64,000 nucleotides of DNA. Origin: Persephonella hydrogeniphila (GTDB lineage: Bacteria > Aquificota > Aquificia > Aquificales > Hydrogenothermaceae). Position 1 is the first letter of the stretch. Each line of letters opens with the position of its first letter. The stretch lies in assembly GCF_900215515.1 (NCBI RefSeq), contig NZ_OBEI01000001.1:186001-250000 (forward strand), given 5' to 3'. The position numbers and the translations under genes are program-made. Of this stretch, positions 10,206-29,147 are shown piece after piece. Under the pieces are notes generated by a model. That model did no database searches. It saw only the letters and a program-made list of their open reading frames with translations, and had not been told where the DNA came from.

Positions 10206-13049
10206 TTGGATTGGAAAGATACGCTGAATCTGCCTAAAACAGCCTTTCCTATGAAGGGAAACCTTCCTAATAGAGAACCGGAGATACTAAAAAAATGGCA
10301 GGAGCTGAATATTTATGAAAAGTTAAGGAAGGAGAGAAAAGGAAAAGAAAAATATATTCTCCACGACGGTCCTCCGTATGCAAATGGGAATATACATCTG
10401 GGACATGCTTTAAATAAAATTTTGAAGGATATTCTTGTTAAGTACGAGTCTATGAAAGGAAAAGATGCTCCTTTTGTTCCCGGATGGGACTGCCATGGTC
10501 TTCCTATAGAACAGCAGGTAGAAAAACAGCTTCAAAAAGAGAAAAAAAGAAAAGAAGATCTTTCTAAATCACAGTTCAGAAAGCTATGTAGAGAATATGC
10601 CTCTAAGTATGTGGATATACAGAGGGAGGAGTTTATAAGATTAGGGATAATAGGAAACTGGGAAAAACCGTATCTAACGATGAGACCTTCCTATCAGGCT
10701 CAAGAAATAAGGGAGCTTGGGAAGATTTTTAATTCTGGTATAGCTTACAGAGGTAAGAAACCTGTTTACTGGTGTATATACGACAAAACTGCAGAAGCAG
10801 AAGCAGAAGTAGAGTACAAAGATAAAAAAGACCCTTCTATATATGTTTCTTTTGAGCTTGTGGAAAATCCCTTTGGAATAAAAGAAAAGACATACGCTGT
10901 TATATGGACTACAACCCCATGGACACTCCCTGCAAACTTAGGAATAATGGTAAATCCTGAGTTTGATTATGATTTTCTGAGATCAGGAGAAAAAGTTTTT
11001 ATCGTTGCAAAGGAACTTCTGGAAAGCTTTAAAGAAAAAACTGGCATAGAAGGAGAAATAATAAAAACAGTAAAAGGAAGAGAATTAGAGTTTATAGAAT
11101 ACAGACATCCATTCATAGACAGAGTCTCAAAAATATACCTTTCTGAGTTTGTTGAGCTTGGAACAGGTACAGGTCTTGTTCATATGGCTCCCGGGCATGG
11201 TCAGGAAGACTATATCATAGGGCAGAGATATGGTGTTGAGCCATTTGCTCCTGTTGATGACGAAGGAAGATTTACTTCTGAAGCTCCAGAGTTTATACAG
11301 GGATTAAAAGTTTTTGAGGCAAATGAGCCGATTATAGAAAAATTAAAAGAAGTGGGAGCTTTGCTTCACCATGAAGTAGTTGAGCACTCATATCCCCACT
11401 GCTGGAGATGTAAAAATCCTGTAATATTCAGGGCAACTCCCCAGTGGTTTATATCCATGGATGCGATACTTGAAAATGGAAATACACTGAGAGGAGAAGC
11501 TATAAAAGAGATTGAAAGGGTAAAATGGATACCCCATTGGGGAGAGAACAGAATAAAATCAATGGTTGAGAACAGACCTGACTGGTGTATATCAAGACAG
11601 AGAAGCTGGGGTGTTCCTATAGCTGTTTTTTACTGTAAAAAATGCGGGGAAATCATAAAAGATATAGAAGTTTTTGAGCATGTAGCAAAGCTTGTTGAGA
11701 AGGATCCTTATGGTGCTGATATATGGTTTGAAAAAGATCCCCATGAGCTTCTCCCGGAAGGATATAAATGTCCAAAATGTGGCTCACAGGATTTTGAAAA
11801 AGAAGAAGATATCCTTGATGTATGGTTTGATTCAGGTGTTTCCCATGCTGCCGTCTTAAAAACAGGCTTCTGGGATGAACTTAGATGGCCTGCAGATATG
11901 TATCTTGAAGGTTCAGATCAGCACAGAGGATGGTTCCAGTCCTCCCTTCTTGAAGGTGTTGCCTCTTACGGAAGAGCCCCTTATAACAGCGTTCTGACCC
12001 ATGGTTTTATACTTGACGAGAAAGGAAGAAAGATGTCCAAGTCTGAGAGGAATGTTATCCCTCCAGAAAAAGTGATAAAACAGTACGGAGCGGATATACT
12101 CAGACTGTGGGTCGTTTCAGAAGATTATACAGAAGATATAAAGATAGGAATGAACCTGCTTAAAGGAATAGCTGATGATTACAGAAAAATAAGAAATACC
12201 TTTAGATATTTCCTTGGAAATCTATACGATTTTGATCCAGCTAAAGATTATGTTAGATACGAGGATATGTTAGAGATAGATAGATGGATATTATCAAAAC
12301 TGCAGAGGGTTATAGATATAGCCCATTCTTCTTACGGGAATTACAGATTTCACCGCATATATCACGAGATAAAAAGATTTATCATAGTAGACCTATCTGC
12401 TATATATCTGGATATACTAAAGGATAGACTGTATGTTTATGCTCCGGAAACTGTTGAAAGAAAATCTGCCCAGACTGTACTGTACAACCTTTTAACAGGC
12501 TTATCAAAACTTCTTGCTCCTATACTGTCTTTTACAATGGATGAGGTCTGGGATTATGTAAGAAATTTTGATAAAAATGCTAAAGAAAGCATACATCTTG
12601 AAGAGATGCCTGTTGTCAATGAAGATCTGATTAATTCTGAGCTTGAAAGTATATACAAAGAGCTTTTGCTGGTTAGAGATGATGTTTTAAAAGCATTAGA
12701 AGAAGCGAGAAAAGCAGATATAATAAGACATCCATATGAGGCAAAAGTGATTTTAAGCCTGCCTGAGAAATACAGAAAACTTGTTGAAGAGAGAAAAGAC
12801 TGGATTAAATTTTTCTTTACAGTTTCACAGGTGGAACTGTCTGAAAATCCTGAAGGGAAGGTTGTTATAGAAGGAGAAGGAATAAAAGGTTCCAAAGTGG
12901 CTGTTAGAAAAGCTGAAGGTGAAAAATGTCCAAGATGCTGGATTTATGATGTATCTGTTGGGAAAAATGGTCAACCTGTCTGTGACAGATGTATGGAACA
13001 ACTAAGAATCATGAATATAGATATAAATCAAATAGAGGAGGTCAGATGA
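10206..13049 (+). CDS. ileS: Isoleucyl-tRNA synthetase
   Basis: A 947-residue class I aminoacyl-tRNA synthetase that charges tRNA-Ile. The HIGH motif appears as HLGH in PPYANGNIHLGHALN and the KMSKS motif is intact at residues 609-613. The editing (CP1) domain is present, with TTTPWTLPAN. The C-terminal zinc finger has CPRC and CDRC. I prefer TTG at 10206 because GGAGGT lies seven bases upstream and the protein then begins like other IleS (M-DWKDTLNLPKT); an upstream in-frame TTG at 10191 would overlap that site. The gene overlaps the HU gene as ATGA. Confidence 0.97.
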   Translation: MDWKDTLNLPKTAFPMKGNLPNREPEILKKWQELNIYEKLRKERKGKEKYILHDGPPYANGNIHLGHALNKILKDILVKYESMKGKDAPFVPGWDCHGLPIEQQVEKQLQKEKKRKEDLSKSQFRKLCREYASKYVDIQREEFIRLGIIGNWEKPYLTMRPSYQAQEIRELGKIFNSGIAYRGKKPVYWCIYDKTAEAEAEVEYKDKKDPSIYVSFELVENPFGIKEKTYAVIWTTTPWTLPANLGIMVNPEFDYDFLRSGEKVFIVAKELLESFKEKTGIEGEIIKTVKGRELEFIEYRHPFIDRVSKIYLSEFVELGTGTGLVHMAPGHGQEDYIIGQRYGVEPFAPVDDEGRFTSEAPEFIQGLKVFEANEPIIEKLKEVGALLHHEVVEHSYPHCWRCKNPVIFRATPQWFISMDAILENGNTLRGEAIKEIERVKWIPHWGENRIKSMVENRPDWCISRQRSWGVPIAVFYCKKCGEIIKDIEVFEHVAKLVEKDPYGADIWFEKDPHELLPEGYKCPKCGSQDFEKEEDILDVWFDSGVSHAAVLKTGFWDELRWPADMYLEGSDQHRGWFQSSLLEGVASYGRAPYNSVLTHGFILDEKGRKMSKSERNVIPPEKVIKQYGADILRLWVVSEDYTEDIKIGMNLLKGIADDYRKIRNTFRYFLGNLYDFDPAKDYVRYEDMLEIDRWILSKLQRVIDIAHSSYGNYRFHRIYHEIKRFIIVDLSAIYLDILKDRLYVYAPETVERKSAQTVLYNLLTGLSKLLAPILSFTMDEVWDYVRNFDKNAKESIHLEEMPVVNEDLINSELESIYKELLLVRDDVLKALEEARKADIIRHPYEAKVILSLPEKYRKLVEERKDWIKFFFTVSQVELSENPEGKVVIEGEGIKGSKVAVRKAEGEKCPRCWIYDVSVGKNGQPVCDRCMEQLRIMNIDINQIEEVR

Positions 13050-18166: not shown

Positions 18167-18204
18167 TATCATATTTAGGTATATATTTATTTAGCAGAAT
18201 AAGA

Positions 18205-18277
18205 CCGCGGGGGTAGCCATAAGGCTTGAGAACATACCCTTCGAACCTGATCCGGCTAATACCGGCGTAGGGAGCGG
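18205..18277 (+). promoter_or_regulatory. TPP riboswitch (THI element)
   Basis: The core is clear: GGGGGTAGCC, a P3 hairpin AGCC/GGCT, the TGAGA turn, ACCCTT, then GAACCTGATCCGG...CCGGCGTAGGGA. Outer stem P1 pairs CCGC (18205-18208) with GCGG (18274-18277). It lies about 110 bases before thiC and should repress it when thiamine pyrophosphate is bound. I see no clean intrinsic terminator between the aptamer and the GGAGG of thiC, so control is probably at translation or through a structure I could not resolve. Confidence 0.93.
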
Positions 18278-18374
18278 ATTATGGATGTTTTCAGATTTTA
18301 TCCCCGATTTATGACCATTTTCATTTTTAGATGGGTCTAAAAGTGATACAAGGGTTATTATAAAACGGCAATAA

Positions 18375-28171: not shown

Positions 28172-28423
28172 TATTGTAATGAGTCTCAACTATGGAAATC
28201 GACGGAAATCCGCATTTTTTTGAAAATCTGTACAGATTTTCGGGCATTTTTTTGAGTGTGAAATTTGTAAGTCATTGAAAAATAAAGAACTCACAGTTGA
28301 GACTGTACTGAGACTTTAGAATTGACAATTTTTCGATTTTATCGTATTTTAATAAGAAGTCTGTACAAAAAACGGCTATTTGGAAAATGAATATGTTGAT
28401 ATTCAAGGCTTCCAAAGGGGTCT
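28172..28423. other. Palindrome-rich gap between parB and the repeat array; candidate parS or CRISPR leader
   Basis: No credible gene lies here. The stretch holds a perfect 20-bp palindrome GAAAATCTGTACAGATTTTC (28222-28241), flanked by two exact copies of GCATTTTTTTGA (28212-28223 and 28244-28255). A 10-bp inverted repeat, AGTCTCAACT (28182-28191) and AGTTGAGACT (28295-28304), encloses that core. It is AT-rich and ends at the first array repeat. Position behind parB suits a centromere; position before the array suits a leader. It could serve both. Confidence 0.55.
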
Positions 28424-29125
28424 CTTGCAATTGACCCGTCTAATGAGGGTATTGCGACAGTATTTTTGATTATCTTTAGTATTTCATTATATTCATCTTG
28501 CAATTGACCCGTCTAATGAGGGTATTGCGACAGTATTTTTGATTATCTTTAGTATTTCATTATATTCATCTTGCAATTGACCCGTCTAATGAGGGTATTG
28601 CGACAGTATTTTTGATTATCTTTAGTATTTCATTATATTCATCTTGCAATTGACCCGTCTAATGAGGGTATTGCGACCATCAATTGTATTTCCTCCTCAT
28701 ATTTGAGGAGTGAATTTCTTGCAATTGACCCGTCTAATGAGGGTATTGCGACGAAAATACAGGAATTACTGATGATTTAAATGCAGAAGTCTTGCAATTG
28801 ACCCGTCTAATGAGGGTATTGCGACCGTAAATGTTAGTTTTGTTATATTTTAATAAAAATTTCCACTTGCAATTGACCCGTCTAATGAGGGTATTGCGAC
28901 CGTAAATGTTAGTTTTGTTATATTTTAATAAAAATTTCCACTTGCAATTGACCCGTCTAATGAGGGTATTGCGACCGTAAATGTTAGTTTTGTTATATTT
29001 TAATAAAAATTTCCACTTGCAATTGACCCGTCTAATGAGGGTATTGCGACTTTTACAGGATTTTTGTTTTTATAATACTACTACTATTATTCTTGCAATT
29101 GACCCGTCTAATGAGGGTATTGCGA
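28424..29125. CRISPR. CRISPR-like array, 10 repeats and 9 spacers, with triplicated spacers
   Basis: A 35-base repeat begins CTTGCAATTGACCC and ends GGGTATTGCGAC. Starts are at 28424, 28497, 28570, 28643, 28718, 28791, 28866, 28941, 29016 and 29092. Nine copies are identical; the tenth differs only in its last base. Spacers are 38-41 bases. Spacers 1-3 are identical and 6-8 are identical, so the order is A-A-A-B-C-D-D-D-E. The repeat is partly palindromic: GCAAT and ACCC pair with GGGT and ATTGC. On the minus strand the repeat would end ATTGCAAG, a common CRISPR 3' end. No cas genes are in the window. The array stops 12 bases before the ribosome site of the next gene, so a leader is possible only on the left. 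Confidence 0.85.
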
Positions 29126-29147
29126 TTACAAAAATCCGGAGGTGTTT

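What the first reader, a model, noticed from the sequence alone, without database searches (positions are those of the whole stretch)
28424..29125. CRISPR-like array with two spacers each present three times in tandem
The array order is A-A-A-B-C-D-D-D-E. Identical units of 73 bases (28459-28677) and 75 bases (28826-29050) occur as exact triplets. Normal spacer acquisition gives unique spacers, so two separate triplications point to repeat-mediated recombination, replication slippage, or a function that selects for copy number. No cas genes are in the window, so the array is an orphan here. An assembly artefact is also possible but would have to hit two places equally.
Basis: partly seen in the sequence, partly recalled or inferred. 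Interest (0 to 1): 0.75.

Follow-up and report, generated by a model that had tools for sequence, protein, structure and literature searches.

The report
CRISPR satellite array with duplicated spacers
This is an ordinary bacterial immune-memory (CRISPR) array in a heat-loving Persephonella bacterium in which two memories are each written three times in a row, most likely through copying slippage between the repeats; the exact count of three is not secured by the short-read assembly.

Summary
In detail: 28424-29125 holds ten identical 35-nt repeats and nine spacers in the order A-A-A-B-C-D-D-D-E, with exact 73-bp and 75-bp triplets. It is a real CRISPR array, not a dispersed element, and not a functional orphan. 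A 24-repeat sister array with the identical repeat and a nearly identical leader lies on another contig, in a type III-A locus (csm1-5, cas6, csx1, cas1, two cas2, CalpL/T/S). A third, 5-repeat array lies 40 kb away. The 240-bp leader with a conserved promoter is on the left, so A is newest. The sister array has a further triplet, one non-adjacent duplicate, and one overlapping pair (67 and 38 nt). Relatives also carry tandem spacer copies (n = 2, 2 and 4). Such duplications are known and usually put down to slippage or recombination. Re-acquisition is unlikely for the exact triplets, because spacer length varies freely in this system. Contig ends share exactly 95 bases, the mark of a K=96 assembler: tandem copies (n of 2 or more) are credible, but 'exactly three' is not secured. 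No protospacer was found. Ordinary kind, mildly unusual frequency. More novel, in passing: a conserved Cas1-like protein lacking catalytic residues beside a second Cas2.

The parts
28182..28423 (+). Leader, about 240 bp, nearly identical to the leaders of the two sister arrays (C6, C1b) and recognisably related to that of a congener (G024)
   Evidence: Alignment
28322..28350 (+). Promoter-like site TTGACA-17-TATTTT in the leader; both boxes conserved in the sister arrays and in G024, pointing into the array
   Evidence: consensus match only
28424..29126 (+). CRISPR array: 10 repeats of 35 nt, 9 spacers, order A-A-A-B-C-D-D-D-E; the last repeat ends in T instead of C
28423..28677 (+). Exact tandem run of period 73: spacer A (38 nt) three times, leader-proximal
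28678..28717 (+). Spacer B, 40 nt, single
28753..28790 (+). Spacer C, 38 nt, single
28791..29050 (+). Exact tandem run of period 75: spacer D (40 nt) three times, internal
29051..29091 (+). Spacer E, 41 nt, single, oldest (trailer side)

Best explanation
This is a satellite array of the type III-A CRISPR-Cas system of a Persephonella genome. It is transcribed rightwards from the leader promoter, cut by the Cas6 of the remote locus into crRNAs with the 5' handle ATTGCGAC, and loaded into the Csm complex (inferred from identical repeat, leader and promoter; processing not shown). Spacers A and D were each acquired once from an unknown invader. Their repeat-spacer units were later multiplied in place by misalignment of the 35-nt repeats during replication, or by unequal recombination; once a unit is doubled, further copies form more easily. 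At least two tandem copies are very likely real; the exact number three is uncertain because the assembly could not traverse the run directly.
For: Same repeat in three arrays, all one strand; shared leader with conserved promoter; type III-A genes, Cas6, Cas1 and Cas2 beside the 24-repeat array. The repeat folds into a strong hairpin (-12.6 kcal/mol, z -3.9). The exact triplets are at the leader end (A) and inside arrays (D; C6 spacers 8-10), as expected of duplication anywhere in an array. Spacer lengths vary from 35 to 47 nt with one of 67; two draws match in length with probability about 0.13, so nine identical copies in three triplets would need about 5e-6 even if re-acquisition always hit the same start. 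Tandem copies in congeners and relatives: n=2 in G024 and G028, n=4 in G040. Literature: 3.3% of 24,090 spacers are duplication candidates, 86% of these classed as duplications and only 1% as reacquisitions (PMC11472070); adjacent single-spacer duplications arose in carried group B streptococci and may result from slipped misalignment (PMC5641575); tandem spacer duplications in M. tuberculosis (PMC7968741); slippage as the likely mechanism (PMC8047081).
Against: No related strain without the triplets was found, so the duplication itself was not watched happening. The tandem frequency here is higher than in the rest of the family (6 extra copies among 37 spacers against 5 among about 348; 3 events among 31 distinct spacers against at most 4 among 349; Fisher p 0.0002 and 0.014), which plain slippage does not explain, although collapsed assemblies of the relatives bias this comparison. 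All three runs having exactly three copies, never two, is odd for slippage. Spacers 1 and 2 of the sister array share a start but differ in length (67 and 38 nt), so repeated acquisition from one site does happen in this genome.
Confidence: 0.75

Rival explanations
1. Assembly effect: the tandem duplication is real, but the assembler wrote a default number of copies, so 'three' three times reflects the assembly graph; the true number may be two, three or more at each place. (Not exclusive of the best explanation.)
For: Most contig ends share exactly 95 bases with another contig end, so K=96. At K=96 a run of two or more units is a loop; a 150-nt read cannot tell three from more; a fragment of at least 257-262 bp is needed to span three units. 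A JGI pipeline that re-assembles pairs simulated from Velvet contigs with ALLPATHS-LG is documented (PMC3814635); that it was used here is inference. Three loci all show exactly three.
Against: The simplest unrolling of a K=96 loop would give two copies, not three. Tandem units cannot appear at all unless reads cross an A-repeat-A junction.
Confidence: 0.4
2. Repeated acquisition: Cas1-Cas2 inserted the same protospacer several times in succession, because of a hot spot or a persistent invader.
For: C6 spacers 1 and 2 start at the same base but are 67 and 38 nt long and read as one continuous frame, so they are best read as two acquisitions from one site. A is leader-proximal, where new spacers enter. 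The locus has an unusual adaptation cassette with two Cas2 and a Cas1-like protein.
Against: Exact length identity in nine copies is unlikely under the free length variation. D and the C6 triplet are internal. Reacquisitions are about 1% of duplicate candidates in CRISPRCasdb. Other arrays of genomes with the same cassette show only one tandem event in 78 spacers.
Confidence: 0.15
3. Copy number is selected: several copies raise the dose of a crRNA against a frequent virus.
For: Two arrays of the same system carry multiplied spacers; a phage-matching spacer is recurrently duplicated in group B streptococcus CC23 (PMC5641575).
Against: No protospacer found for A or D in viral contigs, phages, plasmids or 41 related genomes, so no common target is known; slippage needs no selection.
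Confidence: 0.07

Closest known systems
Tandem spacer duplications in the Mycobacterium tuberculosis CRISPR locus (DVR duplications, PMC7968741)
   Same: Single repeat-spacer units repeated side by side in an array of a type III-A system; short reads resolve them poorly
   Different: There mostly doublings known from many strains; here three triplets in one draft genome
Internal spacer duplications in group B Streptococcus CRISPR1 (PMC5641575)
   Same: Adjacent identical spacers, some arisen during carriage; slippage suggested
   Different: Type II-A system; doublings reported
Type III-A CRISPR-Cas with CalpL/T/S (Sulfurihydrogenibium sp. YO3AOP1, PMC11417357)
   Same: Csm1-5, Csx1 and a CalpL homologue (E 1.7e-50 to 7qda) in the associated locus, followed by genes of the expected sizes for CalpT and CalpS
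   Different: Arrays are split over three sites; CalpT and CalpS here rest on position and size, with only a weak HTH match for CalpS
Array of congener G024 (C25)
   Same: Repeat with 2-3 differences, related leader and promoter, one exact tandem doubling
   Different: Different spacers; doubling instead of triplets

Membership tests
CRISPR array | Identical repeats separated by unique spacers of similar size | tested here: met
   10 repeats of 35 nt, spacers 38-41 nt, 5 distinct sequences in 9 places
CRISPR array | Leader at one end, degenerate repeat at the other | tested here: met
   Leader shared by three arrays on the left; last repeat altered at its last base here, strongly degenerate in the C1b array
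CRISPR array | Spacers match mobile elements | tested here: inconclusive
   No protospacer for A or D; viruses of this genus may simply be absent from the collections
Type III-A CRISPR-Cas (array belongs to it) | cas10/csm1 and csm2-5 in the same genome beside an array of the same repeat | tested here: met
   Csm1 597 bits, Csm2 58, Csm3 216, Csm4 177, Csm5 111, all above NCBIfam cut-offs; same repeat at L010:8824-10608
Type III-A CRISPR-Cas (array belongs to it) | crRNA 5' handle of 8 nt resembling ATTGAAAS at the 3' end of the repeat | tested here: inconclusive
   Repeat ends in ATTGCGAC; similar, not identical; processing not observed
Type III-A CRISPR-Cas (array belongs to it) | crRNAs complementary to transcripts | tested here: inconclusive
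   Spacers are pyrimidine-rich (mean 58%, 21 of 28 informative, sign test p 0.013), the mirror of host coding strands (58% purine), as antisense guides would be; open-frame counts show no bias
Slippage or recombination duplication of spacer units | Ancestral single-copy state in a related strain | not testable with these tools
   No strain with the same spacers was found
   All 39 copies lie in three arrays

The most novel reading that the evidence does not exclude
The adaptation machinery of this system, a conserved cassette of a Cas1-like protein without catalytic Glu and His, two Cas2 proteins and an active-looking Cas1, tends to insert or re-insert the same prespacer, so that the triplets and the overlapping 67/38-nt pair are products of an atypical integration complex rather than of passive slippage.
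Probability: 0.05. Interest if true: 0.65.

Novelty: new member of a known kind. Interest (0 to 1): 0.25.

Why it matters
As it stands it adds a clear case of tandem spacer multiplication in a type III-A system of a deep-branching thermophile, and shows how a K=96 short-read assembly leaves such copy numbers open. If long reads confirm three or more copies at three loci, this genome would be a good place to measure how often spacer units multiply and whether the adaptation cassette contributes.

Tried and rejected
Spacer searches: A and D against IMG/VR with codon-degenerate patterns, the C6 triplet spacer likewise, A and D in 41 related genomes with 3 mismatches, phages and plasmids (only AT-rich chance matches with E of 0.04 or more). 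The repeat in genome contigs and viral contigs: nothing. An idea that the assembler used k=127, which would make 'exactly three' automatic, was dropped when the contig ends showed 95 shared bases. Open reading frames in spacers show no strand bias. Correlation of tandem copies with the X cassette: not seen outside this genome.

Full report
What is there. The window (contig C1, 186001-250000 of a 2.0-Mb draft in 19 contigs) comes from the genus Persephonella: the five nearest relatives of the neighbouring ParB-like protein are Persephonella or Aquificota MAGs with 72-79% identity. It lies between parA-parB and a glyoxalase-family gene. In all five relatives synteny is kept through parB and lost right behind it, and no array is seen in the DNA held there, so the array sits at a break in gene order.

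Which system it belongs to. The same repeat is found only in two other places of the genome: 24 copies at C6:80823-82607 and 5 copies with one fixed difference at C1:254590-254921, all on the same strand as numbered. The 240 bp to the left of each array are nearly identical and contain a TTGACA-17-TATTTT type promoter, whose boxes are kept in the related array of congener G024. The right end of the C1b array runs into a degenerate repeat. So the leader is on the left and A is the newest spacer. Beside the C6 array stand csm1-csm5, a Csx1-type CARF-HEPN protein, cas1, two cas2, cas6, and a CalpL homologue with the genes expected for CalpT and CalpS. Hence the window array is a satellite of a type III-A system. 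A separate type I-B locus lies on C11.

Is the duplication special? The C6 array shows the same habit: spacers 8-10 are an exact triplet, spacers 13 and 23 are identical, and spacers 1 (67 nt) and 2 (38 nt) share their first 38 bases. The C6 repeats 17-22 end in T while repeats 1-16 and 23-24 end in C, so unit 23 looks transplanted from the younger part of the array, which speaks for recombination between units (sequence; inference). Around the cas1 loci of related genomes, among about 349 spacers, tandem copies occur in G024 (two), G028 (two) and G040 (four). This genome is therefore enriched (Fisher p 0.014 by events, 0.0002 by copies), but not alone, and the comparison is biased by collapsed assemblies. 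Published rates agree that such events are scattered and mostly true duplications.

How it most likely arose. Either the units were multiplied in place, or the same protospacer was captured again and again. Spacer lengths in these arrays vary between 35 and 47 nt with one of 67, so two independent captures would agree in length only about 13% of the time, and three exact triplets would be expected at about 5e-6 even with a fixed start. This assumes that trimming is not dictated by the protospacer; the 67/38 pair shows that it is not always so. In-place multiplication by slippage or unequal recombination at the repeats is therefore favoured.

How far the count can be trusted. Most contig ends of this assembly overlap another contig end by exactly 95 bases, which is what an assembler with K=96 leaves (ALLPATHS-LG default, from general knowledge; a JGI Velvet, wgsim and ALLPATHS-LG pipeline is described in PMC3814635; its use here is inferred). 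At K=96 two or more copies of these units form a loop, 150-nt reads cannot separate three from more, and a fragment of about 260 bp is needed to span three units. Tandem copies are thus credible, since the A-repeat-A junction must be in the reads, but three at all three loci should be read as 'at least two'.

Function. The spacers as a set are pyrimidine-rich to the degree that host coding strands are purine-rich (58% each; 21 of 28 informative spacers, sign test p 0.013, t-test p 0.0002). This fits crRNAs complementary to viral messages, as a type III system needs, but the open-frame test was neutral. No target was found for A or D. Nothing supports a role beyond immune memory.

In passing. 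The cas cassette contains a 284-aa protein X beside a second cas2. X itself has no family hit (one relative has a weak Cas1 match, E 0.001), but its profile aligns nearly end to end with Cas1 (E 5.5e-5, 6e-4; hhalign probabilities only 66 and 28). At the catalytic positions it has Asn or Asp for Glu and Asn for His in all nine complete members, while the Asp and Glu of the third motif are kept. The order X-cas2-cas1-cas2 is seen in the eight complete loci from relatives as well as here, and X occurs in 9 of 136 Aquificota genomes, all in this family. One paper search found no description. This may be the more novel thing in this genome.

Noticed in passing
L010:12355-13209 (-), with cas2b 12117-12377, cas1 11239-12120, cas2a 10982-11242 (contig C6:84354-85208 and below): Conserved cassette X-cas2b-cas1-cas2a in the type III-A locus; X looks like a Cas1 homologue that has lost the catalytic Glu and His, paired with a second Cas2. 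Found in 9 of 136 Aquificota genomes, all in this family; no curated family matches it.
   Followed up: partly
L010:8824-9000 (C6 spacers 1 and 2): Newest spacer is 67 nt, nearly twice the usual length, and spacer 2 (38 nt) is its exact prefix; read in reverse it continues one open frame resembling an HTH protein. Looks like two captures from one site with different ends.
   Followed up: partly
L010:10061-10608 (C6 repeats 17-24): Repeats 17-22 end in T, repeats 23-24 in C, and spacer 23 equals spacer 13: trace of recombination between array units.
   Followed up: partly
L012:8787-10446 (C11): Type I-B locus (cas8b, cas7, cas5, cas3, cas4, cas1) whose cas1 is followed within 250 bp by what look like prophage tail and baseplate genes; no cas2 and no array in the 16.9 kb read, so an element may have cut the locus.
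   Followed up: partly
L175:8362-8649 (G040:C18): A relative's array with another repeat type carries one spacer four times in tandem at one end.
   Followed up: partly
L010:13285-16357 (-): CalpL homologue (SAVED plus Lon) followed by two genes of the sizes of CalpT and CalpS; cA4-triggered protease system known from Sulfurihydrogenibium.
   Followed up: partly
window 18199-18290 (+): TPP riboswitch in front of thiC.
   Followed up: no
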